Of a stretch of DNA of 64,000 nt, positions 24,173 to 63,829 are shown piece by piece. The notes below the pieces were generated by a model. That model ran no database searches, was not told where the DNA came from, and saw only the letters and a program-made list of their open reading frames with translations. How positions within the stretch are numbered: position 1 is the stretch's first letter; every line of letters starts with the position of its first letter. The stretch lies in the NCBI GenBank assembly GCA_031763025.1, contig JASSKH010000002.1, positions 11,897,468 through 11,961,467 on the forward strand, read 5' to 3'. A program made the translations under genes and the position numbers. The stretch comes from Macrocystis pyrifera (Eukaryota > Sar > Phaeophyceae > Laminariales > Laminariaceae).

Positions 24173-24420
24173 CCACGGCGCCCCCTTGAGACGAACCCAT
24201 CGTCTCGGCTGTTTCGGCCCTCCCTGCCGGAACCGAGGAGGCGTCCACGGCGCCCCCTTGAGACGAACGCATCGTTTTGGGTGTTTCGCCGCCGGCCTCG
24301 CCGGCGGCAGGTACCTGCTGTGCGCGCTCTAGCATAAACGCGTCCCGGTCGAAACCCCACGTCACGTCGAGGTCGTTCAAGTGAGCCAGACCGTCGTCCA
24401 GCTCATCCACCACCCCCCCC
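24018..24420 (-). repeat. Polyprotein linker with three 63-bp tandem repeats
   Basis: In the frame reading SSQGGAVDASSVPAGRAE the same roughly 21-residue unit occurs three times (about 24090-24285). The run of G at 24413-24422 (minus strand; C on plus) separates this frame from the integrase frame upstream, so the homopolymer is a frameshift site. Confidence 0.7.
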
Positions 24421-24850
24421 CCCACCACCTCGATCCAACGTGCCCACGTCGTCTGCCTCTGACCCCCCCTTTTCCGTAGACAGGGAGTCATTCGCCTCGG
24501 CAGGTACAGGTGGTGTAGGCGACACGCGTTGCCAGATGACATTGCGCGTGATCAGCACAGTGCGTTTCTTTGTCAGCGCTCGTACTGAGTCTCGGGGGTT
24601 GTTTGTTGCAGGGCCAAGGTAAAAACACTCTTGTGCTTTCGCCTGTGACTTGTTTTTCCTCTTCACCTTGCAGTAGCCAGGTTTGAGGAAGGGCAGTAGT
24701 ACTACCGGGGGGGGGCTACCATGCCACATCTCATGCGGCGACTTTCTCTGCGGGTTGGCTGTTGTTGCTGTGCGGTTCAAGGCGTCACACGCCCAGTGCG
24801 ACGCTTCCGCCCACAACGACGTCGTGGCCGGTAGTTTCGCGCCAGGAAAA
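24413..24850 (-). pseudogene. Integrase C-terminal part of the copia element
   Basis: Reads LPATTSLWAEASHWACDALN, then SPHEMWHG and GYCKVKRKNKSQAKAQECFYLG. These are hallmarks of the end of a copia integrase (the LWAEA...NR and SP.E.W segments). The catalytic D,D-35-E core should precede it but is absent: the frame joins almost directly to the Gag zinc-knuckle region near 24860. This is a deletion derivative, and downstream the frame breaks at a homopolymer. Confidence 0.85.
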
Positions 24851-24864
24851 AGCTCTCTTTCGAT

Positions 24865-25034
24865 GAGGGGCAGACATCAGCAGCGTGCCCCAGCCCGTTG
24901 CATCGACTGCATCGATCCATGGACGTGGGACAGGCATCGGCAGAGTGCCCGCGTCCCTGGCATCGACTGCATAGCTTCGCCGTGCACTCGCTCCTCCAAT
25001 GGCCCTTCTTGCCACACCTATGACACTTGCCCAT
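24865..25034 (-). pseudogene. Gag zinc-knuckle segment
   Basis: Three successive C-x2-C-x4-H-x4-C knuckles (CHRCGKKGHWRSEC, CSRCQGRGHSADAC and CSRCNGLGHAADVC). Such knuckles bind RNA in retrotransposon nucleocapsid. Three in a row is more than the one or two usual in copia Gag. The segment is cut off immediately afterwards by the internal deletion. Confidence 0.9.
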
Positions 25035-25127
25035 TGAAGTACTTCCGCTGGCGGCTTTGGCGTTGCTGCCATTGCCACCAGCAGCCGCGGCCGAGCCACC
25101 ACCGTCCTCGTTGGTGCCTCTACCGCG

Positions 25128-26443
25128 TCATCCGTGACCCCGTCGTCCACCTTTTTTTCTGCCATTCCCTCCACCTTTCCCGCGACCCCCGCTACCACCG
25201 CCGCCGGCGGCGTACATCGCATGGCCTGCGTGGCCAGCGTTGGACCCCTTCTTCCTGTTTCCAGAAAATCGGTAATGCCGTTCTCGAACAGCCTTGATGA
25301 TGTCATCTCGGCCGATGCTGTCACGTGATGCCAGGTTCCGAACCTCCACTTCGTATTCGGCAGGCAGAGCGTCAATAAAGATGGTGTACAGCATGTGGTC
25401 GTCTACTGACATTCCTGCTGTTCGCATTTCCGCGGCAAGATCCTCGATCCTGCCCATCTCCTCGAGCGGGTTGCTCCCCGGCGCCATCTTAAAACTGTTA
25501 AAGCGTCGGGAGAGGTCTGATTTCGCCCCCGTCGTCTGAGGGCCGTACCATGCAAGGACAGCGTCCGACGCTTGCCTCGGCGAGGTACACCGGTGCAAAA
25601 ATGCTTTTGTCACTCTTGCTCTTGAGGGCCGTCGACAGGAAATTCCATGCCAGTGTATGCCTGTGCACACTTTCGCGGCTAAACCCCCTAGCTACAAGAA
25701 TCGAGTTATCGGTGTCTAATTCCCCTACGAGAATGTACTGTGGTGGATCCGACACGAAAGCAGACAAGAAACCAACTCCTTTGGCGTAACACCGAGTGTC
25801 TCTTGTCCAGGGGTTGAACTCATATTTTAGCCCACTAAACGATGGCACAGGAGTGTGTTTGAAGGCCAAATGGCGCGATAGAGGCAGATCAAATCCACCA
25901 CCCAACTCACCGCCAGGGTATGCACCCCATCCTCCTGTCCTCCCATGCTGGTCTGGATGACCCCTCGGTGGGCCAACCTCGACAGGCAACGCAGTTCCTC
26001 CGCGTCCAGTTGCTCCCGAATCTGGCGAGTCGCCCTCACGCAAATTTGTCTCTTGTTCTGCTGCAATCTCTCTTACAGCAGTGGGTACTGCCCCTTGTGG
26101 GCTCTCCCCTACAGCAGCGCTACCCTCAGCGCTGCCGGAGTCCGATCGACCAATGACTGCTTCAACAGCAGCAGTAGTCTTTCGTACTTCAGCAGTGGGT
26201 ACTGCCCCTCTTGGCCTTTCTCCTACAGCAGTGGTTTGCTGGACTTTCTCCTACAGCAACGCTGCCTTCAGCGCTGCCTGGCTCCGATCGACCGTTGTTC
26301 CTCGTGAACTCGGCCATCATTTCCCTCATGGCGTTCAGCATCGACGCCTCGCTGTTCTCCATCGCCAGTTCGATCTCGCGTCGCAGCATTTCAACGTCAC
26401 TTGGAGAGTCGCGCTCTTCTTGAGCCGATCCCTTCGAGGGCAT
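25128..26443 (-). pseudogene. Gag of the copia element, frameshifted
   Basis: Three consecutive pieces are in different frames: an N-terminal part starting MPSKGSAQEERDSPS (26443-26189), a middle part with PSFSGLKYEFNPWTRDTRC (26043-25498), and a C-terminal part with LLYTIFIDALPAEYEVEV-type Gag sequence (25670-25128). The last matches the copia Gag polyprotein fold in style. Between the first two parts, 26060-26290 holds a diverged tandem duplication containing CTACAGCAGTGGGTACTGCC. The Gag lies directly upstream of the zinc-knuckle segment. Not translatable as one protein. Confidence 0.75.
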
Positions 26444-26488
26444 CGTGGGCTTCTGGTGCCAGACCTCAAACGTTCAAATACACTAGTG

Positions 26489-26732
26489 TGTTCGTAGAGT
26501 CCAAGCCTGGATGCCCTGACCACCACGTGGCCCGATGAGTTGCTTTATAGTCGTTGTATTAGAGGACAGAAGAGGGGAGAGAGAGCGGAGCCTAGCTCGT
26601 AGCTCGGAGCAGAGAACGGAGTGCTCAAACTCTCCTCGTGAACACACTACATAATTCATAATAACGCCTGCGAAGATATACGCAACCCTCTACAACTTGT
26701 AACCGTGGCTGCTGGAACGATCCAAACGAACA
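26489..26732 (-). repeat. 5' LTR of the copia element
   Basis: 244 bp, TG...CA. On the minus strand it is followed by the leader, which begins CTAGTGTATTTGAACG. A convincing tRNA primer-binding site was not identified, so priming may use an internal tRNA fragment as some copia elements do. Confidence 0.93.
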
Positions 26733-26737
26733 AATTC

Positions 26738-27420
26738 GGCATAATTTGAACACGAAAAATCTGCATCTGAAATTATTTGTCCAACAGAAGGCGCTTCTTT
26801 CTCGTAGCAGGTGCCACTACTTGCTTGTACTGACGTACGACATCTGCAGCAGCAGTGTTTCTCCAGCAACAAAAACAGCAGCAGCAGTAGCAGTGGGACG
26901 CACGATGCCAGGGTCAGCGTCGCTGTACGCTCGGCGGCTCGGCTTGTCAATCTAACCCTTGAACCCTTTGTACACATCTACAGCAGCAGTGTTTCTCCAG
27001 CAACAATACAGCAGCAGCAGTAGCAGTAGGACACACGACGCCAGGATCAGCGTCGCTGTACGCTCGGCTTGTCAATCTAAACCCTTGAACCCTTTGTACA
27101 CGTACTCGATTTTGTCCTGTGTTGGTTTTGAACTCGAAATTCGGCATAATAATTTCAAGACGAAAAATCTGCACTCGACATGCTCTGTCCAAGAGAGAAC
27201 TTCTCGTAGCAGGTAGCAGGTGCCACCGCTACTACTGATGTACGACATCTACAGCAGAGCTTCTCCAGCAGCAAAACAGCAGCAGCAGTAGGACACACGA
27301 GGCCAGGTCAGCGTCGCTGTACGCTCGGCTTGTGTGTGAACCCTTCGTACATGTGTTTCCTGGTCCCGAACTCATAATTTGAAGACGAAAAATCTACATT
27401 CTGACGCGTGTCCAGCAGAG
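26738..27420. repeat. Degenerate minisatellite, about 130-250-bp units
   Basis: Recurring blocks contain ACATCTACAGCAGCAGTG, TTTCTCCAGCA, CAGCAGCAGCAGTAG, then GCGTCGCTGTACGCTCGG and AACCCTTGAACCCTTTGTAC, and 'gacgaaaaatct'. Copies start near 26755, 26970, 27150, 27240 and 27380. The copia element inserted into this array, since its left flank at 21340-21586 has related sequence. Confidence 0.75.
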
Positions 27421-27554
27421 CTTCTAGCAGTGCCACCACTACTACTACTGCTGTACAACGACTATACAGCAGATACTCTCCTTCTTCTCCGTCCCCTCAT
27501 CAGCAGGAGGGTGGGCCTGCAACATGTCTCGGGGACATGGCCCGAACGCTCGTT

Positions 27555-27838
27555 TGTTAAGATACCAGGTATTGTCTTGTATGAGATTGAAGCCCGGTAA
27601 CTACCCGGGTTCAGTCACTGGGAACGTATTTGTAGTACTTGGAAGGCGTATCTTAGATGGAAAACCAGGGGTTTTCAAGAGGAGCACGAGCTTGGTCTCA
27701 GTCTCCGCGTGCACGAAAGGAATAAAATTGCTCTTCGTCTATAGCTAAGCAAACAACACATGTGAGTACAAGGTTTACCGACTTAGAAGGCAGACCTGTT
27801 CAGGGATACGAAGTGCTCCGCAAGCGTTGACCTTAACA
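27555..27838 (+). repeat. Left LTR of the non-autonomous element
   Basis: Nearly identical to 28804-29086; visible differences are a few substitutions and a short indel (CTTCGTCTATAG against CTTAACTTCTTCTATAG). The left copy also has an extra CCAGG at its start. Confidence 0.9.
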
Positions 27839-27956
27839 AGTGGCGTCTTCGGCTTGGGACTTTCCGCTTTTTTGTCGGTTTCGGTTGTTTGTCACTGTTT
27901 TTTTTTTTGTTTGCTTTCCTATTGATGTTGAGTAAGTTTGTTCCGGCCACTGCACG

Positions 27957-28310
27957 ATGGAGACTCAAGAGGTGGAAGGGTCTGCTTCCCCTCACGGTGG
28001 CCGAGCCACTGAGGCCCAGGGCCCCTCAGTGCCCCACCGCCCAAGGCCCGTCGATGTGGATCGAGTGCCTTGTACAACAGACCAACAAGTGGAGCACGAG
28101 TCTAGGCAGGAGCTCCATCAGAACGACGTGGATCGAGTGCCTTGTACAACAGACCATGAGGAGAAAGAGCTTCGACCGGAGCCCCCTGACGGGGCCCGAG
28201 CAGCCTCCGCCAGACGGACCTCATCCAAGACCCCTTCTGTGCCTCGCTCGGCTGAGCGAGCTCTGCCGCCCAAGACAACTGGACGCTCCTTCCTGGACTT
28301 TGGGGGATGA
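27957..28310 (+). CDS. Hypothetical ORF inside the non-autonomous LTR element
   Basis: 117 codons starting METQEVEGSA. It contains an internal repeat, DVDRVPCTTD, twice. It overlaps a longer ORF (27889-28803) in another frame that is rich in aromatic residues. Composition is charged and Pro-rich in the second half. No family is recognised. The position corresponds to where Gag would be, but no zinc knuckle or Gag motif is visible. It may not be translated. Confidence 0.3.
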   Translation: METQEVEGSASPHGGRATEAQGPSVPHRPRPVDVDRVPCTTDQQVEHESRQELHQNDVDRVPCTTDHEEKELRPEPPDGARAASARRTSSKTPSVPRSAERALPPKTTGRSFLDFGG

Positions 28311-28803
28311 ATTTTTGTCTGCCCGATATGTTTCTGGTGTGTTTTCTTTTTTTTTGGACTGGGTTGGGTATGTGTTTTTGCGCATTCTGTCCTGCCTACC
28401 CCCCCCGCCCAGCGTTGGGACTGGTCTGGGCACTCGGCCGCTCAATTGCGGCCCAGGACGCGCTTTCAGAGTTGTGTACTGGGTTTTGATGGTTCTTGTC
28501 GTCTTCCGTGTTATTTTTCTTTTCGTTCCCGTACGCACTTTTCGCTTTTCCGTGCATCTTCCTCGCCCCCCCCCCGTGCGGGCGGTATGGCGATGGCTTT
28601 CATCGACGATTTCTTCCTGCCACTTAAGGCTAGGTCTTCCCTTTATTTTTTTACGTACCTTGCCGGCTTTGTTGCCTCGCAGTTCAGAGGTGTGGGAGTG
28701 GGTTTTGAGCAGCCGCATCTTCGACTCATGTTCTAGTTCGTGGAATTGGGGTTTCCACGAATTTCCCATAATTCTGCATATACGGCCCATCAGAGTGTGC
28801 TAG

Positions 28804-29086
28804 TGTTAAGGTATTGTCTTGTATGAGATTGAAAGCCCGGTAACTACCTGGGTTCAGTCACTGGGAACGTATTTATAGTACTTGGAAGGCGTATCTTAGA
28901 TGGAAAACCAGGGGTTTTCCAGAGGAGCACGAGCTTGGTCTCAGTCTCCGCGTGCACGAAAGGAATAAAACTGCTCTTAACTTCTTCTATAGCTAAGCAA
29001 ACAACACATGTGGGTACAATGTTTACCGACTTAGAAGGCAGATCTGTCCAGGGATACAAAGTGTCCCGCAACCGTTGAACTTAACA
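28804..29086 (+). repeat. Right LTR of the non-autonomous element
   Basis: Matches 27555-27838 along its whole length, with TGTTAA and TTAACA ends. Confidence 0.9.
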
Positions 29087-29829
29087 CGTCGCTGTGGACA
29101 GGCACAGTCTGCCTACGAGTACTGGGTTTCAAGCAAAAACCGTTATAATGTGTTGTTGGTTCTGTGTTTTTTCAACATGGCCCAGCACCAACATGTGCCT
29201 ACACACGTTGCCACGCCTAGCTCGAGCTACTGAGAACGACTTACCACCGCACCAGCACCAGGAGGTCTCTTTTGTGTGTGCGCGCCCACAGAGCCCGCCG
29301 GGGCTGGAATTGGTGCGGTGTGCGTCGAGGGCGGTGGTCAAACGTTGCCCAAAAAAATGTTGAATCACACACACCCGCACACTCACACACATACAGAAAA
29401 ACTTAAAACAAGGCACCCTACGCAAGCCGCTATGAAGAGGCTTTTTTATCTTGGAAGGAAAATTCCAAGAAAAAAAAGGCTCGCACGCTCTGCGCGCTTC
29501 GCGCGCCTTATTATAAGCAAGAAGATGGAAATAGGTCATCTATCTGTGAGTTCGACTGATAAATAATTGAATACCTGGTAGTTGATACCCAATTTAGCAA
29601 GCTGGGTAATACGCCTACTACTATTATATACGTATTTCATTGATAGATGGGAGTTGTGCACAATTTATTATAACACATGTCTTTATATAGGAATTACTAT
29701 TGAAGCTTGGTACAACTCGAAATTTCTTGATTAATTTCGTAATTCGTGGTGGAAATGGATGGGAACAGACGACCACGAATGTTTCTTGTAGGTTGTAGGG
29801 GAAGAGGCAAGTTAGGTCCGCCGGAAGCG
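29087..29829. other. Spacer without recognised gene
   Basis: Contains a CACACA-rich stretch (29365-29395), a short GCGCGCTTCGCGCGC palindrome near 29498, and a member of the TACGTCAGCTG repeat family at 29543-29625. No coding evidence. Confidence 0.5.
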
Positions 29830-30185
29830 GTGCCACGACGGGACGGAACGATAATTTCCTGCGGGAGAGATTTTATCGGCGGGACGGGACGGTAATTTTT
29901 CGATGTCACGGCGGGACGGGACGGTAATTTGTCGGTGTCACGGCGGGACGGGACGGTAATTTTTTGGTGCCACGGCGGGACGGGATGGTAATTGTTCGGT
30001 GTCACGGCGGGACGGGACGGTAATGTCCAACGGGAGAGATTTTATAGGCGGGACGGGACGGTAAGTGACGACGGTCAGAGATTTTGTCGGCGGGACGGGA
30101 CGGGACGGGACGGCGGCACCATTTTGACGGCGGTTTTACCGTCCCGTCCCGCCGTTACCGCCGTTACCATCCCGCCGAAATTACC
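29830..30185. repeat. GGCGGGACGGGACGGTAA minisatellite with inverted end
   Basis: At least seven copies of GGCGGGACGGGACGGTAA, separated by 20-30-bp spacers such as TTTTTCGATGTCAC or an AGAGATTTTAT version. Near 30130-30180 the motif appears inverted (TTACCGTCCCGTCCCGCC), so the array can fold back on itself. Confidence 0.9.
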
Positions 30186-30189
30186 GTGA

Positions 30190-30690
30190 TAAGCTTTGCT
30201 TTTATGTACGTCAGCTGGGAGTCTCCCCGAATTCGGAAAATAAATAATTATCTATACAACTCTCCCCGACCTTCGACCGTCGAAGTAAGGACCGCTTTGT
30301 ATCCCATAAATATGTGCTTATTATTACTGCATACCTGGTACCTGGTACGTGATTTTCAAATTTTTGAGTACGTACGTAACCGCTGTCCGGTGGGCCAGCG
30401 TTATGGTATCCCCTCTCCCCTGTTGCAGCGTTATATTCCCCTCTCCCCTGTTGCGGCGTTCTGGTTTGTAGCAGTCGTCCCCTCATCATACATGGCAGGC
30501 GTTGTCGCCTGCTTTTCTGATGAGTGCCTCGCCCCTTCGTTCAGAAGACATCTGGCGAGGCAAACCGCAACTAATACAAGAGCTTATACCATCCTCAAGC
30601 ACCTCGTGTGAGTGACCAGAGCAGAGCCAAAGGCATCAACCTGCTAGCAGTAGTCGGTCCCTATGTCCATACCGCCTTACACTTAACACT
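30190..30690. other. Spacer, possible 5' LTR region of the gypsy-like element
   Basis: Contains a partial TACGTCAGCTG repeat (30205-30250) and two similar words CCTGTTGC(A/G)GCGTT (30420, 30450). It ends in CTTAACA at 30686-30692, the same terminus as the LTRs at 27838 and 29086, followed by a TGGCGTCGTCGAC stretch that could be a primer-binding site. No matching right LTR was found by eye. Confidence 0.35.
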
Positions 30691-30806
30691 GGCGTCGTCG
30701 ACTAGACGCTTTTGGTATCTGGTCGAGGTCTGATTTTTTTTCCCCCCGGACAATCTGGCTTTTCGCTCTTGTAGTCTGTTTTTTTCGGCTTCTTGCTGTT
30801 TATTTG

Positions 30807-33547
30807 ATGTCTTCTCCTTTTGGTGATTGCGTTCGAGAGTATGATATCCGCCGCTTCCCCAGCGCGTCGGGCGGTGAGACTGATGCAACAGCCGCTATAG
30901 GTTCACGCGCTGTTGGCCCGCGCGACGCAGGGGACTTTTCGTATTCTCCCGGTCTGCCTATTTTCTTGCTTGTTGACAACTCGAGCACCTGTGTCACTGC
31001 TACTAATTTTTGCCGTGCCACAGCCCCTCTGTCACTGCTTGCAACAGGTAGACCCTCGTTCCTTTCGTCCATGCTTGTCGCTGATTCGACCCTGCAGCCT
31101 GCTGCCAGGCCGGACGCAGCGACAAGCGCGCTGGCCCCAGAACGGTACTCCGGGCAGCCGGTTCCGTTCTGGGCGCAGCAGTATAGTCGGCCGAGCCTCT
31201 CTCGGGTATATGATGTCCGTCACGCCAAAAATCCGAGTAATGTTTTTCGTGATCGGCTCGCCCCCCCCCCTTCTTTCCATGCCCTGCATACAGCGCCTTT
31301 TATTTTAGTACGAACACGGATAGTTTCGATGCGCGTTTATCTGTTAGTGAGGTGGGACCCGAGGACATTCGGTCCTCGTGCTTACCTCTTCCTCTGCTCA
31401 TGGCACCCGAGCCCGGCACAGTTGTTCCCCCTGTACCCACGCTTGGCCCTCGTACCCGCTCACAGACAAGACGCGCTGCCGCGCTTTTGCAGTCACACAA
31501 CACGCACCCCTCAGGCGACTGCTTGCCGCCTGACTCGTCTCACATCGACCGTTCCGTTCGTTGTGAGGCTGATGCGAGTCTCCCTGAACCTTCGTCCGCG
31601 CGAGATGTACGACGTGCCCGACGCGCAGCTCGTGCGTCAGCACCAGCTCCGCCTACTAACAGATTATTTTTTGTTGTGCCTGAAGAACAACTTGATTTCA
31701 CTATGCCCTCGTATGGCGATCTTTCCGTTGCGCCTATTAGCAGTTATAATAGTGGAGTTGTTGATCCTGCTCTAGACGTCCTAGACGTTCAGCCAGCAAC
31801 CGTTGTGCCGCCGTATAGCAGTGATCATCTTCATGCCACAGCAGACAGCGACATTTTTGATGCAACAGCAGGACTTTCAGCTTTTATTCCTGGCCCTTCG
31901 TGTAGTCATTTTCATATTGCACCAAGTATCGATTTGTTTGGCACCGTTTCCCCTGCACGACACGTCCATCAAACCGCAGACGTGTCGTCGTACAGCAGTG
32001 CTTTTTTTCATTCCACAGCGGACAGCAATACTTTTGATACGGCAGCAGGTCTCTCAGCTTTTACCCCTGACCCACCGTCCAGCCATTTTCGTGTTGCACC
32101 GGATATCGATTTTTTTAGTGCAGTTTTCCCTGCGTCACACGTCCATCAAACCGAAGACGTGCCGTCGTACAGCAGTGATTTTTTTCATGTTTCCCCTGCA
32201 CGACACGTCCATCAAACCGCAGACGTGCCGTCGTACAGCAGCGATTTTTTTCGTGCCACAGCAAATCGCGATAATTTTGATACGGCAACAGGACTCTCAG
32301 CTTTTCCTCCTGACCCACCGTTCAGCCATTTTCGTGTTGCGACGGATATCGATTTTTTGAGTGCAGTTCCACCTGCATTACACGTCAATCAAATCGCAGA
32401 CGTGCCGCCCTACAGCAGTGATTATTTTCATACCACAGCAGACAGCGACATTTTTGGTACGACAGCGGGACTCTCAGCTTTTATTCCTGACCTGCCGTGC
32501 AGTCATTTTCATGTTGCACTGAGTACCGATTTTTTTGCTGCCAATTGTTTTGTTACTACCGGCGGTCGAAGGGAGCGTAGAAACCGGTCGGGCTCCTTGT
32601 TTGTGCCTAGCGCCGGGTCCTGGCCTTACGTGCCGATAGCAGCGGACAGCGAGAATGTTCGATTCGAGGTAGCAACTACGTACGAGTCTGTAGATCCTCG
32701 TTTTTCGCCTCCCGAGCTTTTGCCAGTGCCCAGCGAGCACGGCCTCTTGATATCCCTCGCTGACGTACGCGCGCATTTTATCCCCCTGCGTTCTATCCGT
32801 GACGCTTGGGATCTGCCCTACGTACCCCTGCTCGACCGGGAGCACGACAATCTGGGGAATTCCAGTGTGCCGACCATATTATTTTCACCCGCACAAGTGG
32901 CTTCGTCATCCATTGCGACCTTAGATTTATCGAGTGACATGGGTTATATTTCGACGCGCGGCGATTTTCCTACGGTTGATTGGTTGGTTTCAGCTACACG
33001 TATTCCCCTGTTTCACGCCTCGGGGCCGGCCCCCCCGACTGTCGTTCGCATATTCCCTGCTCACCGGGTATTTACGACCACAGTACTGGCGTGCCCTTTT
33101 TCCGACGACGGTATATCCGTTTTCGGTTTGCCACCCACTGTTTACGACTTGAACGCAGCTACGCCCTCGGCGCCAAAATGCGCCCCTTCTTACCCAGACG
33201 AGATACGACGAGGTGATCTGAGAGAACAGATCCCGCGTGCCGCCCGGGCCGTGCTGACAACACCATTTGCTGTGGACGCACTTCAAATGCCTCCCGCCTA
33301 CATGACGGATGTCTCGCCCCCCGGTCAAGGTGGACCGGTCGGGAGCCCCCCACCCCTCCCCGAAATGTCTCGGGGACGACAGACACGACCGGTCCAGGCG
33401 AATGCGCCTCCCACCCCGGCCTCGATAACGAGGCCCTGGCAAGGCAAGAAGCAGGATGGGACCAGTCCCCCAAAGAAAGAGAGACCCCCAACTACTTTGC
33501 AGGGGATGTGTCTGACACACCCCCCGCTCCTTCTCGCGCGACAGTGA
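30807..33547 (+). pseudogene. ORF1 of the gypsy-like element, tandem-repeat protein
   Basis: Two frames join at a C-run (31261-31270): an N-terminal part beginning MSSPFGDCVREYD and ending near VFRDRLAPPP, then a 731-codon frame (31352-33547). The second carries a 59-residue repeat (177 bp) spanning about 31780-32530, with landmarks HVHQTADV, YSSDFFH, FDTAAGLSAF and SHFRVAPDIDF; one unit is truncated. The C-terminal part is Pro-rich and basic. No Gag zinc knuckle is visible, so calling this Gag rests only on its place before the pol-like frame. The next frame begins inside its end (40-nt overlap), which could reflect a frameshift expression strategy. Confidence 0.6.
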
Positions 33548-34100
33548 ATACCGCCGCGTTCGATCCTACCCAAGAGTACTGCACGCGCGACATAGTGTTC
33601 TTCTGGCAGCCCCCCTCATGCTTCTCGCAATGGACGCCTTCCCGTTTTACGGTCGAAGGCATCTCTTATTCCTGCGGCGAACAGTTCTTCGCCGCCGAAA
33701 AGAGCCGCCTCTTCGGAGACCACCAGACCCTACAACACATCATGCGCGTGTCTGACCCCTGCCTGCACAAGTAATACGGACGCAAAGTCCGTAACTTCGA
33801 TCTCGCCGTGTGGGAACGCGAGCGAGAAAATATCGTGCTTGTCGGCTCTTACGCCAAGTTCGCTCAAAACCCAGCCATGCGAACCCACCTCTTGGACACA
33901 GGCGACAGACTTCTCGCGGAAGCTAGCCCTTACGACCTCATATGGGGCATCGGATACAGGGCTGACGCTATTCCGGCACGCCAGCCGCCCCTGTGGCGCG
34001 GCTTAAATTTGCTGGGCAAGACCCTGCAAACCGTGCGACGTCTCTTCCGTGACCGCGCGCCGCCACCGAAGCGCCCCCAACAATTGCCTCCTCAAGACAC
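33508..34100 (+). pseudogene. NADAR (YbiA-like) domain in the retroelement polyprotein
   Basis: About 150 residues resemble the NADAR fold. Landmarks are DIVFFWQPPSCFSQWTPS and FTVEGISYSCGEQFFAAEKS, in place of the usual LSN(F/W)-P and Y-x-x-(A/G)E-x-x-(F/Y)-x-x-x-K. YGRKVRNFD follows, then W-x-x-x-R, KFAQNP, IWGIGY and WRGLNLLGKTLQTVR. Known NADAR proteins cleave N-glycosidic bonds in riboflavin intermediates or remove ADP-ribose from guanine. One in-frame TAA (33772-33774) stands just before YGRKV; otherwise the domain reads through. The frame continues to the protease. The domain identification is from memory of the family; its role in a retroelement is unknown. Confidence 0.75.
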
Positions 34101-34325
34101 TTCGCCCTCGAGTAGAGACCGCATCTTCGAAGTCGACCCTTCGACGCGGCAGCAACTGTGCCCAAGAGACACACCTGCAGCCGTCTCCCCGTCGGGGTAC
34201 CCCGACTCCCCCACAACCGTGCCATCAGACCACGGCGGCGATGTTCTCGAAGTAATGTCCGCCGCCCGATCCGGTCAGCATCCCCCCTTGCTCGCTGAGC
34301 AAGGGCCTTGTCTTGTTGCTGGTGT

Positions 34326-34560
34326 CGTAGCCATGGACGACTCTTCCTTTACCACCAAAATCAAGATCCACAGTGGCCTAGCTGCTCTGCGGCTTGGATG
34401 TGTCGCCCTTTAGGATACAGGCTCGCCGCAGACTTTCCTTAACACCCGCGCGTTCGATAGCATGAAACACGTGGGTGCTGCCTCTGCCACTTGCGAACGA
34501 CACACTCCTCCCAGGTCATGGGGCGGCTTGGGTAAGTCTCCGCCTCTTGAGACCACGTGA
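34326..34560 (+). pseudogene. Retropepsin-like protease fragment
   Basis: The segment CVAL-stop-DTGSPQTFLN holds the aspartic protease active-site DTGS in the usual context, preceded by a hydrophobic strand. A TAG replaces the residue before Asp. It continues with ERHTPPRSWGGLG, a sequence typical after the first half of gypsy proteases. The fragment is cut about 50 codons later where the integrase region begins, which marks the deletion of the rest of protease, RT and RNase H. Confidence 0.8.
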
Positions 34561-34579
34561 CACGCAGTCACTGAAAGGG

Positions 34580-35890
34580 ACGGCGAACTACGTTCTTGAC
34601 GACAACGACTTATTGTGGAGCGCGCCTCGGGGGGAGGCACCGAAGTTGGCCATTCCGAGAGCATTAGTGCCAGGGGTGCTGGCACTCGTACACAGTACCT
34701 ACGGCCACCCGGGAGTTGCGCGGACCCTGCTGCTGATTAAGGGCAAGTACGGATGGCCGACAGTAGCCCAGGACGTCAGGGAGTACGTACTGTCGTGCGG
34801 TTGCAGGAGGAGAAAAAGGGCCCGGAGCCAACACGTGGCCGTGATGCCTGCTCGGTTATTGTGGCCTTGGGAAGTGGACCTCCAGGACATGAAGCAGGTA
34901 TCCAGCGCAGGGAATAGGTACCTGCTGGTAGTGGTCGATCGGGCCAGCCGGTTCCTGTTTGCGTACCCGCTGGAATCTAAGGATTCGGTGGGAGTGGCGA
35001 GGAAACTCCTGGAGCTGTTGCTCACGTTTGGCGTGCCGCTGTCGATTAGGAGCGATGCCGGGGGGGAGTTCACCGCTAAGGTGGTCGCCCACCTGTGCCA
35101 GTGGCTCAGGGTGGAGCTGGATCATGGTCCTGCTGACCACCCTCGTAGTCAAAGAGCCATGGAAACGATGGGGGGGGTGGCTTCAGGAGGTCTTGGCGGA
35201 GCTTTGCAAATGTTGGCCGGCAAGGTGGGACGATTATGTAAGCGCGGCTTGCTGGATTCAAAGGACTACGCCGGACCCGCGTCTCCCGTCAGGTGGGACG
35301 CCCTCCAAGATTCTGTTTGGTCGTGGTGCCCGCACAAACTTGGATGCTCTTACTCCTGCGCTGGACGGTGAAACTTTCCGCACTGGGCTCGACAATTTCG
35401 TAGCGGAGAGACACCAGACGTTCATGGAACTGCGGGCAATGTTCAAGAAGCGTCAGGAGGACAAGAACAAGCGACGCGTACGCCACAATGCGGCCAGTAG
35501 GCGACACTCTCCAGGCGTAGGGGCGCGAGTGGGAGACCTGATGCTAACAGCAAGATGGCGCGGGAGGGCACTCACGTCAAGCTAGCACATCAACACTGGA
35601 CGGGGCCGTGGCGGGTGACGGCTATTGCACAGCCGGGTATCAGCTACCAGGCGACAATGAGCGGCCGCCGGACCCGGAGGAGAACGGTTTCGGCTGCCAA
35701 CATTAAGGAATTTCACGTGCGGCCGGAGCATCTGCGCCATGCCTTCGAGGACGAATTCGCGCATCTGGCATGGGGCGCGGACTTGGGGTTGGCAGACACC
35801 TCGACGGTGGCGGTGCCGCTCTATACCCTGACCGACCGGCGAGCCATGGAGAGCACGGGGACCGGGTGGGAATGGCAGTACCGAGGTTGA
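34580..35890 (+). pseudogene. Integrase of the gypsy-like element
   Basis: The zinc-binding HHCC module reads HSTYGHPGVARTLLLIKG, then LSCGCRRRK. The catalytic core follows: WEVDLQDMK (first Asp), LVVVDRASRFLFAYPL, SIRSDAGGEFT (second Asp), then QRAMETMGG holding the third acidic residue. Near 35130 the frame changes and continues as WLQEVLAELCKCW, FGRGARTNLDALTP and ELRAMFKKRQEDKNKRRV. A second shift leads to a C-terminal part with HVKLAHQHWTGPWRVT (35580-35890), typical of the integrase tail. The frameshifts rule out a functional enzyme. Confidence 0.88.
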
Positions 35891-35902
35891 TACCAAAGTG
35901 GG

Positions 35903-36274
35903 GTGGCGTCAGAGTGGCTACCTGAACAGGAAGTAAGGGACAGCTTCACCCCTCTGCAACTCGACGTCTTCCATGCCCTCTGGGAAGTGTACAAGGGAAA
36001 GGATTGCCGCCCCCGGCCGCCGGAACCACTACCGAAAGAAGAGCGTGACCAGGGGCTGCGAACGAGAGCGCTGCAGGACTTTCCGACGGGGACGCAGGTC
36101 AGGCGGTCGTTTCCTGCAGTTGATGGGGTGAGTCGAACGGCGGTAGGAAAGGTGTACGACTTTGGGGAGCCGTATTGGCGAGCGAGATGCCCTGACGGAG
36201 ATTGGGAGGAGCTTAACCGCAGCGAAGTGACTCGCGGGGTCGAGGAACACCGGAGCGCCGCGGGCCAGAGATGA
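35903..36274 (+). CDS. ORF after integrase, retroelement C-terminus
   Basis: Starts within the VASEWLPEQEVRDSFTP segment and contains FPTGTQVRRSFPAVDGVSR, VYDFGEPYWRARCPDGDWEEL and REVTRG-like sequence. The pattern 'x-V-x-K-x-F-x-G-V-x-G-x-V-x-x-(F/Y)-x-x-x-x-Y-x-V-x-Y-x-D-G-D-x-E-x-(L/M)' is known from polyprotein ends of algal and oomycete retroelements, where a Tudor-like module is suspected. It lies just downstream of the integrase in the same orientation, separated by a stop at 35888. Confidence 0.55.
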   Translation: MASEWLPEQEVRDSFTPLQLDVFHALWEVYKGKDCRPRPPEPLPKEERDQGLRTRALQDFPTGTQVRRSFPAVDGVSRTAVGKVYDFGEPYWRARCPDGDWEELNRSEVTRGVEEHRSAAGQR

Positions 36275-36400
36275 CCCCCGTCAGTAACAGGCGGGGAACG
36301 GAAGCGGTGAGCCGATTAGCATGGGGGGGAGAAGAAGCATTCGGCTGCTGGGGGGGCCCGTTTTGCTCCGGCGCATGCCGCGTTGGGCAGGGGGGATGTT

Positions 36401-37780
36401 TCAGCGCCGACAGTGCTTCGAGGAGGATAATACAACGCGAGACAGCTGTTCTGATCAGTGTCACGCGTCGGGTCTATTCGATAGGCAGAGGGCAAGCTTT
36501 GGTTAGCATCCTCTGGGCGGATCTTGTAGGGGCAAGGAAGATCCCCGGTGTGGGAATGTCTTCGGTCTCGGGTACAGAGCCAGTAACGAGGTTCCGGGAC
36601 CACCCGGTGTTTACTCGACACCACTAAGTGAAGAAAGAAAGTCAAAGCCAAGTGATCTGTGATACTTGTCCTTTCGACCCCCAGCCCCTTGGGCCCTGCC
36701 TTGCCCGTCGTGCCCGTCATCGTGTCTGTGGTGCTTCGTTTATTGTTCACGCTGGCTGCTTGCATCTACCGCTTTGCATCGATCCACGTTCTGCATGACC
36801 TGATCATTACTGCTTGAAGGCACTTCCTCGAACTCCCAAACAACAGGTGAGCCGGCCTCAGAGATCTAACGAGCGCAGGTCCTTTTTAGGGCCTGAGAGC
36901 TGTACCCCGCTGCAACAGGTCAACCGATGGTACCGCGTGCATGTAGTAGTGTAGTGTCCACCACAAAAACGAGTAGTACTCAGTTCCCGCCGACTACTAT
37001 CCATATTACTCTTTCCTTCGAGCAATACGCTAATAACCCGTGGCTCCCGTTTCCGCCAAGAACAGCTACGCGGGTATAACCTGTGACTCCCATTTCACTT
37101 TGCGACGCCCCCGGGATTTCACGTTACCCACATCCCGAAGGGCAACCTTGTATATATATATATTGTAGAGCAGGGCAAGGGTTGCCCTGCTGTTCCCTAG
37201 GTGTAACCATATAATAAAAGGTTGGACGGAGGTATGGAAATTCTCTCGCGACGTAGATACTTACTACGTAGAATATTACTTGTTTGAAAATGCTGCTGTT
37301 GCCGCTATTTCGAAGCAAAAAGCCAAAACATAATATCACAGTCGCATCGCGCAGATTGCGATGACCTCGACGTGTCGCGAACACACCCGTATCAAATAAA
37401 ACGCCGCAGTAAAGTCCAAGATGACAAAAGGTATACAAGTAGACTTTTCGCCGATGATAGTTACGTACATGCACCCCGTGAACAACACTCTGTCGACCAA
37501 ACAGATAATATAAATGTAGCTGCACAGAACTCGAAGGGCTGGATGCGCCGTGCAGCATTTCTGCCAAATGCGTTCTAGCAAAAAGAGGGAAAGAAGAAGG
37601 CAGGCAGTCCTAATCGAGAAGCAATATCACACGAAAAATGAAAACGTTTCAACACACATGTGAAGAACACGTGAGACGCACAAGGCGGCGGTACGTCGGA
37701 CTCGAGTCGGCAGGGCACAGCTGCGCTCCCCACAGCGTAGTGTCCAGGACTTCGGTAAGGCGGAGGCATGATCGGCCCTT
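36401..37780. other. Spacer, no gene recognised
   Basis: Begins at the possible 3' LTR of the gypsy-like element. A 147-codon minus-strand ORF (37124-37567) and smaller ORFs show no known motif. An inverted pair TTGCCCTGC / GCAGGGCAA is present at 37170-37190. Nothing further is supported. Confidence 0.45.
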
Positions 37781-37782
37781 GT

Positions 37783-38880
37783 CTAGTTGCCTCGATTATC
37801 TCCGAGTTCTTGGCTTGCGCGCTCATGGTAGCTAGCACTACTGTATGCTGTCGTTTGTGCCTGGGGAACAGGCAAGGTCATAGACTTTCGGAGGTAGACA
37901 TACATATGCTGGCAGCCATGATACCAGTCATTGTCGACCCCGAGTATACAATCGTCCTTCAACCACCGCCCTCTGGAACGCAACTGGGTCACGATTTGGT
38001 TTGGAATGGAGTAGATGACAGCTACGAAGCAGTGCTCATCGCCTATCATCAAAATGGGTGACGGTGCCGGCGGCTCTCCGGCACCCTCGTAGATGTCTAC
38101 ACGTGCAGACGCGAAGAAAACACGATCTGGGGCGTTGTCCGCATCCCAAGGAAGAATCGACCATGCGGATGTGCTGACGTGCCGGGCGCAGCTCTCGTCG
38201 CAGAGGGGGCACGGAGCAGGTCCAGGAAATGAGAAGTCGGAGGCGGCTCCGGTCAGGAACAAGGCATTGACTGCATCCTGGAGTGACTGGGGTGGTCCGT
38301 GCGGAATCAAGACTGGTGCGGGATATCGCCATCGTGCACATTGGGATGCGGTTACCTCGATATGGCCATGGTCCTCGATATGGCAATCGATAGTGTTGTA
38401 GTGCCAGTTGAAGCCGAGAGCCGTCCGAGTGTACATGATACGAACATGCCGTTCCACGACGTCACCTGGCCATCCGTTGTTAGGGTGGAGTTGATTATCA
38501 GATCGAAGAGTGATCGCTTCGTATATGGAGCCCGGCGTTCCCATTACGGATCCTGCGCCCGGTAGGCCGCTACTACCAAGGATCTTGTCACGTGCTTGAG
38601 CCAAAGAAACCTGCATTCCGCAAGAGAATGCGACGCATACCGCACGAAATGATACAGTAAAACGTTTAGGAGACATATGAAAGCACAACGTAGTATGTAT
38701 ATGTCGGTTGTACTCAGAAACACGACATATAAGATCCATGGGAGATTGGGGAGCATGCTGGAAAGGGATCCTGGCAGTAGCGTATTGGGATATCGGGGTA
38801 ATGTGTGCCCACCAATGCCACTCGTCAGGTGTAACTCTATACTGCATATGAGGCGAGTCAACTCGACAGCGAGGATGCAA
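37783..38880 (-). CDS. Orphan 365-codon ORF, unknown function
   Basis: The longest open frame in its part of the window that is not a low-complexity artefact. The N-terminal part has MQYRVTPDEWHWWAHITPIS, a segment that recurs in diverged copies at 39335-39057 and 45293-45111, so the protein sequence has been conserved through duplication. Later landmarks are CPLCDESCARH (possible metal-binding cysteines), ILMIGDEHCFVAVIYS and GRWLKDDCILG. The His plus W...DD pattern faintly recalls the C-terminus of ubiquitin-type cysteine proteases, but no catalytic Cys box was found. The start is uncertain: the frame opens at a TTG and no good upstream ATG is present. Probably part of an unrecognised mobile element. 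Confidence 0.45.
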   Translation of the reverse strand: MHPRCRVDSPHMQYRVTPDEWHWWAHITPISQYATARIPFQHAPQSPMDLICRVSEYNRHIHTTLCFHMSPKRFTVSFRAVCVAFSCGMQVSLAQARDKILGSSGLPGAGSVMGTPGSIYEAITLRSDNQLHPNNGWPGDVVERHVRIMYTRTALGFNWHYNTIDCHIEDHGHIEVTASQCARWRYPAPVLIPHGPPQSLQDAVNALFLTGAASDFSFPGPAPCPLCDESCARHVSTSAWSILPWDADNAPDRVFFASARVDIYEGAGEPPAPSPILMIGDEHCFVAVIYSIPNQIVTQLRSRGRWLKDDCILGVDNDWYHGCQHMYVYLRKSMTLPVPQAQTTAYSSASYHERASQELGDNRGN

Positions 38881-38957
38881 TATAAGAGGAGTTCCGTTTC
38901 ATGTCTGGAGTCAGCCACGCGTTCCCGTGCCAGCTGCGCCTATACCTTTGAGATCAT

Positions 38958-39447
38958 CCGCTGTTAGGGTCGAGTTGATCATCAGGTCGAAGGGTGATCG
39001 CTTCGTGTATGGAGCCCGGCGTTTCCATTACAGATCCTGCGCCCGGTAGGCCGCTACTACCTATAATCTTGTCCCGTGCTTGAGCCAAAGAAACCTGCAT
39101 TCCGCAAGAGAATGCAACGCATACCGCACGAAATGATACAAAAAACGTTTAGAAGACGCATGAAAGCACAACGTAGTATATATATATGTCGATTGTACTC
39201 AGAAACACGACATGTAAGATCCATGGTAGATTGGGGAGCTTCATGCTGGAAAGGGATCCTGGCAGTAGGGTATTGGGATATCGGGGTAATGCGTGCATAC
39301 CAATGACACTCGTCAGGTGTAACTCTATACTGCATATGAGGCGAGTCAACTCGTCAGCGAGGATGTAATATAAGAGGAGTTCCGTTTCATGTCTGGAATC
39401 AGCCACGCGTTCCCGTGCCAGCTGCGCTTATACCTTTAGAGATCAAT
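38958..39447 (-). repeat. Truncated tandem copy of the orphan ORF 5' region
   Basis: Repeats 38470-38957 in the same orientation, including CCGGTAGGCCGCTACTACC, 'gcttgagccaaagaaacctg' and 'gcatatgaggcgagtcaact'. It ends at GAGATCAATCAAC (39430-39447), the same end as the third copy at 45146-45415. The frame is disrupted here. Confidence 0.85.
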
Positions 39448-40166
39448 CAACACACTAGTGTATGCCGGTGGTCTTCTATTGGCAAGCGTAGCCCAGGCCA
39501 ACCTAGAGAGGTGGGAACCTGCTTCCAGCATGTCTATTCTTTTCAGATGATGTCTATTCTATTTGGATAATGTGCTTCGTCAGGGAGTCAGCGTGTGTAT
39601 TTTGAAAATGAGATCGAGGTCCTGGAGGAGAGGACGTGTGTGTGAGAAGGAGAGGCAGGGGATGCCGCACCAGAAGCAGCAGCGATCCCAGCAGGGCTAA
39701 GTTTTAGCCAGACCTGGTAGATTCGCTTGGCACTGGTGGCGAAGGCGCTAGAGAGTAGCAGTTGCAGGGGCAGCAGCAGCCCCAGCAGCACCGTCAGCAA
39801 CGTCAGCAGTCAGAGGATTGCTGCACTTTGAAGCGACAATGAAGCGCATGCAGTAACCACCGTTACCGCCGCCGCAGTGACCACCGCCGCCGCAACCGCC
39901 GTCTTCGCTACCGCCGCTGCCGCCGCCGTCGTCTCGACCGCCGCGTAACCGTCGTTGCTGCAACACCCTGGGATAGCCAGGCATCTGCCTGAGTCTGTGG
40001 GTTCGCTGCGCGCTGGCGACGTAGATGCACGGAATATTGTATGAAAGAGGGAGTTCGGCCGGCAGGAGCCGGAAGGGAAGGTGGAGACCGCGGGAGCGAC
40101 GCTGAACGTGTTCTGGCAGAATCGTCTGCCTGGACTGCTGAAGCACCACGCCCGCAGGTGGCCGAT
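39448..40166. other. GCCGCC/GCAGCAG-rich spacer
   Basis: Low-complexity region with CAGCAG (39670-39800) and CCGCCGC (39855-39950) tracts. ORFs here read as poly-A, poly-G or poly-P. No gene recognised. Confidence 0.5.
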
Positions 40167-40190
40167 GGGGGGGGGGGGGGGGGGGGGGGG
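40167..40190 (+). repeat. Poly(G) tract at LINE 3' end
   Basis: 24 G, immediately next to the 3' end of the minus-strand LINE. The second LINE copy abuts a 21-bp G run in the same way. Confidence 0.9.
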
Positions 40191-42614
40191 CGTACTCATT
40201 TGTTGCTTGCATTAGTCATTTGACCATTGACCACGCATCCCTTTCGAGACGGAGCACCGTTCCTACTCCTAATCGAGACACCTCCAACAATTGGGCGCTC
40301 CTTACGTTGTTTCCATACATTACATAGAAACGTTTTGCTAATCTTCTCCCCTTCCTGTTTGGCCTCCTGTGGCCATCATCTATCTCCTAGGATAGCGATC
40401 GTTTTCTCGCTGCTATTCATTGTATCAAACTCCTCCATGTCACATTCGTCTATTTTCCTCATCTCCTCTTCCAACACATCCCGTTCCTCCTGGTATATTT
40501 CACATTCTCCTACTATGTGAGTTCTACTCTCTATTGCTTTGTCACACGGGCACATCTGTGCGCCTACTTCCTCCTCCTCCCGGCTACTGGTGTACCTCTT
40601 TCTTCTTTCTGGCTGGTTCAGGTCCCCTACACGAAAGCGCAGTTTCAGCGTTTTCGTGAAGTCCATTGGGCCATGCAAATACGTTTTCATTCCTATTCCT
40701 TCCCTCAATCCCCCGTATATCTCCAAGTGTTTTTCCGATTCCACCTTGTTTCTTAGCGCTAGCCTTTCTCTTCTTTCTATCCTTTCTTCTACTTCTGCCT
40801 TGTACCTCCCAAATTTCCCGGCGGACATCATCTCTACTTGGTTCCCCCTAGATCCTTCCATACTTTCTCAACTACGCCATCCCACCTTATTCCAGCTCGC
40901 CCTTTTGTTACTTTCTCCCATACGGCTCTATCAACTATGGCTGGCAACCTCTTTTTTGGCATGTTCCTTACTTTATATTGCCAGTTCAACTTTCTCATGT
41001 CTCTATTTGTCTTGAGTGGGCGCATTCCCAGTTCTGCTCTTGATACTGTAATACTAGTCGTACTTGAGCATCTTAGGATTTTTTTAGCTGCTGTCGTTTG
41101 TTCTGTTTCCAACTGTTTTACGAGTTTCGCGTTCCCTTCCCATACTTCTCCTGCATATTCTAGCTTTGGTACTTTCACATTCATCAAGATACATCTCTTA
41201 ATCCTAGTATCAAGGTTCGGGCCTGATAGGATCGCATCCATCTTGCCTACTTGTGTCTTACCCTTTCCGAATACTTTTGCTATATGCGTATCCCAAGAGC
41301 AGTCTTTTGAGATCTCTACGCCAAGGTATGTATACTGGTCTACGATCGGCAATTCATCTTGTCCCCACTTCCAACTGAAATTTACCGGGTTTACCTTATC
41401 TTCGTTGCAAACAACTACTGCGCATTTCTTGACGTTCGCCGTCACCCTCCATTTCCTGGTGTATTATAGCGCCTTCTCTATTTGTTTCTGCAATCCTTCG
41501 GGTGTTTCTGATATCCCCACGAAGTCATCCGCAAACATCAATCCCGACACCGTATCTCCCCCTACCGTGACTCCCCGCCTTACTCCCTCGACTGCTACTA
41601 TCAGGTCGTTAATATATATCTTGAATAAGTTAGGTGACAACGTACATCCCTGTGCAACTCCTTGTAAAATATCAACATACTTCGATATTTCCCCGTCCAG
41701 CATCACAGCACTTACCGTACATTTCGTCATCTTTTTCATCATTCTCCACATCTTTCCTCTGATTCCTATTTCCCACAGTTTTTTCCACAATCCATTTCTC
41801 CATACTGTGTCGTAGGCTTTCTGCACATCTAGAAAGAAACAGTACGTTGTTAGTCCCGCGTCTTTCCTACCTTGAATAATCTTACCTAAGGTGTACACAT
41901 GGTCTACGCAGCTACGGTTTGGCCTAAACCCTGCGTGCCCTTCGCTAATTGTGTCTTCCTTCTCCAACATCGTTCCCATTCCATCGTTCAAAATCTTACA
42001 AAATGTTTTGCCTACTGTGCTTAGTAGCGTTATCCCTCTACAGTTCCCCGGGTCAGCCTTATCTCCTTTCTTGAATAAATTTACTACTACTCCTTCTCTC
42101 CACCTCCTAGGTGCGTACTCGTTTTTCCATATCCAGTTATACAACATGACCATCATGGTAAGCATTCCTTCTCCCCGTATTTCATAAATTCATTCACTAT
42201 TTGGTCTGCCCCTGCTGCCTTTCTATTCTTAAGTTTAGCTACACACTTCTTTACTTCTTCCCTTGTGAACTCTCTCTGTAACCCTCCCGAACCACTGTCT
42301 TCCCTTTCTGATGTATCTACGTTCGCCTCTGCCCACGCGTTGATTTCCTTCTCGAATTCTGCATCGAACGTTTCGTTGGCTGTGGGTGTTCCTAGCTTTC
42401 GGTAATGCTCTACTAGTACCTCCCTTTTCCCCTTCGAACTACTAACCATTTTACCGTTCTGTGCTCTTAGAGTAGCTATTCCCGTGTCTGCCTCTCCTGC
42501 TTGTTTGCCAAGTATCCCATATATCCCTACCCACATCTGCTTCATCCCGCCCTCAAAGTCTTCATTCGTTTTATTTACTACGTCTTTCCATATCCCTTTC
42601 TTCTTCTCTACCAT
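40191..42614 (-). pseudogene. LINE retrotransposon, 5'-truncated
   Basis: A non-LTR reverse transcriptase read in pieces on the minus strand. The upstream part has REFTREEVKKCVAKLKNRKA and AAGADQIVNEF. The RT proper (42165-41464) has VVVNLFKKGDKADPGNCRGI, GHAGFRPNRSC, FFLDVQKAYDTVW, GVAQGCTLSPNLF and the catalytic FADD. After one in-frame TAA (41464-41466) it continues NVKKCAVVVCN to KVWKDLGG. A further frame ends with CPCDKAIESRTHIVGECEIY, a Cys-His motif usual at LINE C-termini. Damage comprises frameshifts near 42165 and 40850, plus stops at 41464 and 40376 (a Trp codon changed to TGA, by comparison with the second copy). No endonuclease domain was found. The 3' end lies on a poly(G) tract. 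Confidence 0.9.
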
Positions 42615-63801: not shown

Positions 63802-63829
63802 CTCTTGCTAGAATATATTATTGTGTTGA

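What the first reader, a model, noticed from the sequence alone, without database searches (positions are those of the whole stretch)
33508..34420. NADAR domain inside a Ty3/gypsy-like polyprotein, directly upstream of the retropepsin
A domain with EQFFAAEKS, YGRKVRNFD, IWGIGY and WRGLNLLGK is in frame with a DTGS protease and precedes a gypsy-type integrase. NADAR proteins are N-glycosidases; some remove ADP-ribose from guanine. A captured copy could protect element nucleic acid from host ADP-ribosylation or alter NAD-derived metabolites. The sequence shows the fusion; the role is inference.
Basis: partly seen in the sequence, partly recalled or inferred. Interest (0 to 1): 0.75.

Follow-up and report, generated by a model that had tools for sequence, protein, structure and literature searches.

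The report
Retrotransposon carrying an ADP-ribose enzyme domain
The window holds a broken, patchwork piece of a seaweed jumping gene whose intact relatives carry an enzyme domain that elsewhere removes ADP-ribose from guanine; this kind of fusion was already reported in another brown alga, but what the enzyme does for the element is still unknown.

Summary
A NADAR domain (33598-34047; Pfam E 8.5e-9 and 1.2e-28 for its two halves) lies in frame upstream of a DTGS motif, split by a TAA and followed by a TAG. The locus is not one element. Window 33148-34557 is 96% identical to NADAR-carrying Ty3/gypsy family "K1" (L131, L132). From 34557 to 36917 it is 95% identical to another gypsy family, "C", whose two sampled copies show no NADAR. 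Of 40 scored matches, only the window spans the join. That explains the missing reverse transcriptase and means the integrase seen is not NADAR's partner.

The fusion is real at family level: K1, A and B carry NADAR just before the protease motif, with RT and RNase H downstream. All 150 scored host-genome hits exceed Pfam's cut-off. E43, K50 and E125 equivalents are kept in 33, 31 and 33 of 33 sampled copies. The host is very probably giant kelp. The architecture is in print for Ectocarpus (PMC12477816). I read NADAR as a particle-borne N-glycosidase that cleans element nucleic acid, placed like betaretroviral dUTPase; that role is inference.

The parts
31253..33147 (+). Open frame of unknown origin (element X) with direct repeats of 243 nt; runs in frame into the gag end of K1. 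No Pfam match; no DNA or protein match (E 1e-3) in any of the 46 loci fetched from this genome
33148..34556 (+). Fragment of NADAR-carrying gypsy family K1: end of gag, NADAR, protease start; 96% DNA identity to L131 and L132, homology ends on both sides
33469..33475 (+). CCCAAAG heptamer in gag frame inside the gag/pol -1 overlap, also in L131 and L132; candidate frameshift site, not shown
33598..34047 (+). NADAR domain (YbiA type)
   Evidence: position worked out from the Pfam match ends
33772..33774 (+). In-frame TAA inside NADAR, at the position equivalent to residue 76 of the Phytophthora NADAR
34411..34413 (+). In-frame TAG directly before the protease motif
34414..34437 (+). DTGSPQTF protease motif, the same in L131 and L132 (K1) and in most family A stretches where it was found
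34557..36917 (+). 5'-truncated tail of gypsy family C (integrase to element end), about 95% identical to L129 and L130
34652..34816 (+). Integrase zinc-binding domain H2C2 (family C)
34868..35143 (+). Integrase core rve (family C); the reading continues in another frame after this

Best explanation
The NADAR in the window is a dead fragment of a large lineage of kelp Ty3/gypsy retrotransposons, many with long open frames, in which NADAR is the first domain of Pol, between gag and protease. SHOWN: family architecture, abundance, kept active-site residues, constraint between families, and that the window locus is a mosaic of at least two gypsy families whose 3' join is private among the matches scored. 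INFERRED: NADAR is made as part of Gag-Pol, packaged in the virus-like particle and cut free by the protease, and there acts as an N-glycosidase on nucleic acid or nucleotides (most likely removing ADP-ribose from guanine of the element's RNA or cDNA). In placement and logic it would work like the dUTPase that betaretroviruses carry N-terminal of protease.
For: Pfam and NCBIfam matches. Own genome: 150 scored of 1264 candidates, all over the Pfam cut-off, 126 of them without a stop inside the match; the same search rings in 3 of 14 control genomes. NADAR then protease region in 20 of 20 best-scoring loci and 19 of 20 longer stretches. L113: NADAR through RNase H in one open frame of 1696 aa. 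L132: NADAR 3.8e-43, RVT_1 6.8e-26, RNase H 2.6e-31 in one frame; rve 1.9e-6 (under cut-off) further on in another frame. L131: open frame of 2349 aa from NADAR past the integrase match. K1 gag has a CCHC knuckle upstream. Of 33 copies including the window, E43, K75, R79, W89, R93, E125, D130 and W133 are kept in 33 and K50 in 31, the residues that bind ADP-ribose or matter for hydrolysis in PMC11543638. Window against family A: pN 0.285-0.307, pS 0.711-0.738 (4 copies). Join at 34557 seen only here. dUTPase parallel: PMC1224870 passages, PMC2774666 passage on fungal elements.
Against: No activity or packaging data exist here. YbiA and phage NADARs cleave guanine-ADPr in vitro yet did not protect cells from DarT1 (PMC11125620), so activity need not mean that function. 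Within-family constraint is weak: pN/pS 0.53-0.56 in A, 0.85 in B (5 copies), as expected if many copies drift after insertion. NADAR changes faster than RT (43-60% against 72-79% aa identity between families, intact pieces). Synonymous sites between families are saturated, so ratios there are rough. D86 is not kept and Y84 is mostly F. The 33 copies come largely from the best profile scores, which favours conserved ones.
Confidence: 0.5

Rival explanations
1. NADAR acts on small molecules (ADP-ribose derivatives used as host alarm signals, or riboflavin intermediates), not on element nucleic acid.
For: YbiA-type NADARs are riboflavin-intermediate N-glycosidases (PMC9503650 and PMC11543638 passages; NCBIfam TIGR02464 bears that name). 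Phage NADARs are argued to prefer soluble ADPr derivatives (PMC9503650 passages).
Against: A low-abundance Pol domain confined to a particle would be a poor place for a cytosolic metabolite enzyme (inference); RNA-virus NADARs embedded in polyproteins are argued to target macromolecules.
Confidence: 0.25
2. NADAR is a binding module (for ADP-ribosylated nucleic acid or protein, or RNA) that tethers Pol, with catalysis irrelevant.
For: Placement as Pol's first domain next to the nucleocapsid; NADAR domains of nematode SNA-3 serve RNA processing, with the biochemical role unproven (PMC9303266 passages). Two of 33 copies have lost K50.
Against: E125, E43 and D130 equivalents kept in 33 of 33 copies.
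Confidence: 0.15
3. The window locus is itself a chimeric mobile element (X gag, K1 NADAR-protease, C integrase) made by template switching.
For: All three parts share strand and order; the upstream frame runs in frame into the K1 gag end; the C tail keeps its 3' end.
Against: The 34557 join occurs only in the window among 40 scored of 200 candidates; stops and frameshifts; RT and RNase H missing.
Confidence: 0.05
4. NADAR is a neutral passenger kept by hitch-hiking.
For: Weak within-family constraint.
Against: Three families at 43-60% aa identity keep the residue set, and 126 of the 150 scored hits have no stop inside the match.
Confidence: 0.05

Closest known systems
Gypsy-12_Ec32 and its lineage in Ectocarpus (PMC12477816, Genome Biol 2025)
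   Same: [quoted passage not shown] putative C-terminal chromodomain; brown alga; nearest non-TE relatives mostly bacterial
   Different: Here in a 537-Mb genome that fits giant kelp, which that main text does not name, and in at least three families; residue-level and selection data added. The window copy is a decayed mosaic.
Tx1 LINE ORF1 NADARs of Crassostrea gigas (same paper)
   Same: NADAR carried by a retrotransposon
   Different: Non-LTR element; NADAR in ORF1, not beside a protease
Betaretroviral dUTPase N-terminal of protease (PMC1224870)
   Same: A small hydrolase encoded between gag and protease of an LTR element; keeps nucleic acid clean
   Different: Different domain and substrate; analogy only, no membership claimed
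NADARs of RNA-virus polyproteins (PMC9503650)
   Same: NADAR embedded in a replication polyprotein
   Different: Positive-strand RNA viruses, no reverse transcription
Phytophthora nicotianae NADAR (PMC11543638)
   Same: YbiA-type residue set including E125 and R93
   Different: Not described there as part of a retroelement (section 12 and passages seen)

Membership tests
NADAR / YbiA family | Significant profile match | tested here: met
   PF08719 over cut-off in both halves; TIGR02464 over cut-off on the second half only
NADAR / YbiA family | Glutamate equivalent to E125 (YbiA type), with E43 and K50 | tested here: met
   Window keeps all three; E125 33, E43 33, K50 31 of 33 copies
NADAR / YbiA family | N-glycosidase or guanine-ADPr hydrolase activity | not testable with these tools
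   No assay
NADAR-carrying Ty3/gypsy lineage (Gypsy-12_Ec32 type) | NADAR at N-terminus of Pol, before protease | tested here: met
   20 of 20 best-scoring loci; L113, L132
NADAR-carrying Ty3/gypsy lineage (Gypsy-12_Ec32 type) | Pol order PR-RT-RH-IN | tested here: met
   Family level: L132 has protease motif, then RT and RNase H over cut-off, then rve at 28.5 bits (cut-off 32.6) in another frame; H2C2 over cut-off in L114. Not met by the window copy, whose RT is missing
NADAR-carrying Ty3/gypsy lineage (Gypsy-12_Ec32 type) | C-terminal chromodomain | tested here: inconclusive
   Chromo E 0.010 (L113) and 0.011 (L132), below cut-off
NADAR-carrying Ty3/gypsy lineage (Gypsy-12_Ec32 type) | RT clusters with the Ectocarpus lineage | not tested
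   Ectocarpus sequences not held
NADAR-carrying Ty3/gypsy lineage (Gypsy-12_Ec32 type) | Long terminal repeats | tested here: inconclusive
   None of 100 bp or more in 19 of 20 stretches of about 9.4 kb, nor of 80 bp or more at a distance in L131 and L132; these may not span whole elements. The 232-bp pair in L126 flanks an insertion after NADAR
Retropepsin (Ty3 protease) | D-T/S-G active site at the right place | tested here: met
   DTGSPQTF in window, L131, L132 and family A; Pfam itself not significant
Betaretroviral dUTPase-Pro | dUTPase homology | tested here: not met
   The domain matches NADAR and no other Pfam family at E 1; works-like comparison only

The most novel reading that the evidence does not exclude
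Kelp hosts ADP-ribosylate guanines of retroelement RNA or cDNA as a defence, and this gypsy lineage carries its own eraser inside the particle: a counter-defence domain captured from bacteria and held in the slot between gag and protease, which would predict an uncharacterised guanine ADP-ribosyltransferase in brown algae.
Probability: 0.15. Interest if true: 0.85.

Novelty: new member of a known kind. Interest (0 to 1): 0.42.

Why it matters
NADAR enzymes have known chemistry but unclear roles in eukaryotes. A lineage of retrotransposons with many copies that keeps the active site next to its protease gives a testable setting: either ADP-ribosylation of nucleic acid limits retrotransposition in brown algae, or NADAR has another substrate inside particles. 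The window also warns that a motif-level reading of one repeat-rich locus can join parts of different elements.

Tried and rejected
Rejected: that the window is a NADAR-protease-integrase element; that NADAR is a chance insertion. Found nothing: an LTR pair around the window locus (self-comparison of 24001-44000 at E 1e-3); relatives of the window's integrase in viral contigs; integrase relatives in the 86 bacterial and viral-contig NADAR loci at E 1e-2; Rfam families at gathering score and tRNA genes in the window; a solved-structure relative of the first NADAR half (only an unrelated chain at E 0.73). No promoter or terminator scan, structure prediction or fold search was run. The 5' join at 33148 was not examined in the genome: that search did not complete.

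Rows dropped: one search set exact duplicate proteins aside; one search left out six more truncated or poor NADAR frames (L016, L028, L041, L043, L045, L081), leaving 65 relatives. The tree dropped four divergent viral rows (L082-L085) that were; with them the retro rows need 2 changes, without them they are one side of a branch at 89/71, not starred. One search left four frameshifted A copies (L091, L094, L097, L120) out of the A counts, leaving 21, of which 16 have no stop in NADAR. From I quote identities of pieces without stops only: protease rows of L107 and of the window and RT rows of L110 and L116 hold stops and give lower identities (34-50% between families for protease, 41-63% for RT).
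Full report
OBSERVATION. The four quoted motifs lie in one + frame, in two open stretches (33217-33774 and 33775-34413) parted by TAA 33772-33774. Pfam PF08719 matches both: E 8.5e-9 (36.3 bits, cut-off 35.1, profile 1-67) and E 1.2e-28 (100.9 bits, profile 74-162). PHROGs family 1017 matches both halves; NCBIfam TIGR02464 passes its cut-off on the second. The one solved chain matched by the second half is a NADAR, 8bau, E 1.2e-9. A DTGS motif follows in the same frame after TAG 34411-34413. Integrase H2C2 (1.1e-11) and rve (6.4e-12) follow in another frame. No reverse transcriptase match lies between.

HOST. The window is in a 537,376,219-base assembly of 223 contigs, one of 26,510,325 bases. 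This fits the giant kelp assembly: 537 Mb, 223 contigs, largest 26 Mb (PMC10498591, passages seen). The identification is inference from these numbers.

THE LOCUS IS A MOSAIC. DNA comparison shows 33149-34555 at 96.1% identity to L131 and 33148-34557 at 95.8% to L132, both copies of a family I call K1; homology stops at both ends. From 34557 the window matches another gypsy family, C: 34557-34692 at 95.6% to L127, then 34693-36917 at 94.9% to L129 and 34643-36918 at 94.7% to L130. The family-C stretches upstream of the integrase (L127 and L128, 5.8 kb each) have no match to the window's NADAR or protease query at E 1e-3, and five Pfam pieces of L127 give RT and RNase H but no NADAR (L128 was not sent to Pfam). 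A search of the genome with 34450-34660 scored 40 of 200 candidates: the window alone spans the join, 27 stop at or near base 108 and 12 begin at base 108. So the join is private to this locus among those scored. The stretch 31253-33147 has direct repeats and matched none of the 46 loci fetched from this genome, as DNA or protein, at E 1e-3; its origin is open. The join at 33148 could not be examined genome-wide.

THE FAMILY-LEVEL FUSION. With PF08719, 150 of 1264 first-look candidates were scored and all 150 exceed the cut-off (E 1.5e-44 or better); 126 have no stop inside the match. With the window's own second half, 150 of 1120 were scored: the window itself, a K1 group from 96% identity downwards, and family A at about 54-60%. 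In the 20 best-scoring loci (L087-L106) NADAR is followed by the protease region in 20. In 20 stretches of about 9.4 kb that I picked from the list, partly for long open frames (L107-L126, eight of them at places already among the first 20), the protease region follows in 19; L126 is interrupted after NADAR by a stretch between two identical 232-bp repeats. L113 is open for 1696 aa, and its pieces match NADAR, RVT_1 and RNase H. K1 copy L132 gives NADAR 3.8e-43, RVT_1 6.8e-26 and RNase H 2.6e-31 in one frame, then in another frame rve 1.9e-6 (28.5 bits, under its cut-off of 32.6) and a weak Chromo match, 0.011. L131 is open for 2349 aa. Upstream, K1 gag shows a CCHC knuckle (motif recalled). 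The protease is called by DTGSPQ[TS]F near one position in most of the stretches (not found in L117, L122 and L126, and as DSGSAQTF in L121) and in L131 and L132, since Pfam is not significant. RT identity among K1, A and B is 72-79% for pieces without stops, against 24-28% to family C: one lineage with NADAR and another in which I saw none.

ACTIVE SITE. PMC11543638 section 12 (read) lists ligand and catalytic residues of the Phytophthora nicotianae NADAR. Chain 8bau aligns with a constant offset of 2 at G78, R79, W89, R93, E125, D130 and W133 (worked out); E43, K50 and K75 were mapped by spacing and alignment. That 8bau is the Phytophthora protein is inferred from this numbering. The window keeps E43, K50, K75, G78, R79, V81, W89, R93, E125, D130 and W133, has F for Y84 and L for D86. 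Over 33 copies including the window, E43, K75, G78, R79, W89, R93, E125, D130 and W133 are kept in 33, K50 and V81 in 31; F stands for Y84 in 31 and D86 is not kept in any. The sample leans to high profile scores. R93 is R in only 7 of 65 bacterial and viral-contig relatives. The stop in the window falls at the position equivalent to residue 76; copies without it exist.

SELECTION AND ORIGIN. Window against four family A copies: pN 0.285-0.307, pS 0.711-0.738 over 157 codons; A against B: pN about 0.35, pS about 0.75. Synonymous sites are saturated, so constraint is clear but its size is not. Within A (21 copies) pN/pS is 0.556, 0.534 for the 16 without a stop; within B (5) 0.853. NADAR changes faster (43-60% aa identity between families) than protease (56-67%) and RT (72-79%), taking pieces without stops (for the window's NADAR, skipping its stop). 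In trees with bacterial and phage NADARs, the window, and the window with L132, group with A at 100/98 and 100/96. All retro NADARs form one side of a branch at 89/71 after four divergent rows were dropped, and need two changes with them in: one capture is favoured, not shown. Next to the window and A stand NADARs of Clostridia and other bacteria (89/82). Only prokaryotic genomes and viral contigs could be compared, so eukaryotic donors are not excluded.

MECHANISM. Pol order, the gag knuckle upstream and the -1 gag/pol overlap in the window, L131 and L132, with CCCAAAG in gag frame, suggest that NADAR is the first domain made after a shift from gag; the shift site is a guess, and the frames seen in family A do not show the same -1 relation (L110, L112). 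The slot is that of dUTPase in betaretroviruses, N-terminal of protease, which limits uracil in viral DNA (PMC1224870 passages); a reference on dUTPase in fungal Metaviridae is cited in PMC2774666 (passages). By analogy NADAR may remove ADP-ribose from guanine in element RNA or cDNA. All four E. coli and phage NADAR subtypes tested in PMC11125620 hydrolyse guanine-ADPr in vitro (section 2.1). Against this, YbiA and phage NADARs did not rescue cells from DarT1 in that study, and a search for ADP-ribosylation with brown algae and retrotransposon listed 4 papers, none on this subject by title.

KNOWN OR NEW. PMC12477816 (section 5 part 1 read; [quoted passage not shown] that blastp matches outside Ectocarpus are almost exclusively bacterial; and suggests RNA processing. 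Searches for NADAR with retrotransposon (20 of 104 listed), NADAR domain (15 of 15), YbiA with retrotransposon (1 of 1), and NADAR with retroelement and ADP-ribose (6 of 6) showed no second paper whose listing describes this fusion in an LTR element. The kelp families are thus new members of a known kind. What this work adds: presence in a probable giant kelp genome, three families, the residue check, the selection estimate, and the correction that the window's integrase is not NADAR's partner.

Noticed in passing
L126 3476-9236: Two identical 232-bp direct repeats flank 5.3 kb just after NADAR: a probably young LTR element inserted there.
   Followed up: no
window 31769-32608: Four overlapping copies of a 243-nt direct repeat inside the open frame of element X; the gag side of L131 has 176-nt repeats of its own.
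   Followed up: partly
window 33469-33475; L132 2864; L131 2708: CCCAAAG in gag frame within the gag/pol -1 overlap of K1.
   Followed up: partly
window 36062-36274: Weak match to a Tudor-type model (PTM_DIR17_Tudor, E 0.079, under cut-off) at the C-terminal end of the family-C tail; Ectocarpus has a Tudor-bearing Gypsy (PMC12477816).
   Followed up: no
window 22148-24328 (-): Copia-type reverse transcriptase, RVT_2 E 8.8e-48.
   Followed up: no
window 41467-42189 (-): LINE-like reverse transcriptase, RVT_1 E 1.6e-22.
   Followed up: no
window 62590-63807 (-): 3'-5' exonuclease domain match (DNA_pol_A_exo1, E 2.3e-5), possible host gene.
   Followed up: no
window 38471-39445: Direct duplication of about 490 bp at 92% identity.
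   Followed up: no
L001 3689-6861: Phage-contig NADAR gene between genes that look like an NMN adenylyltransferase-Nudix fusion and a nicotinamide phosphoribosyltransferase (names recalled from the look of the sequences), a context described for phages in PMC9503650 passages.
   Followed up: no
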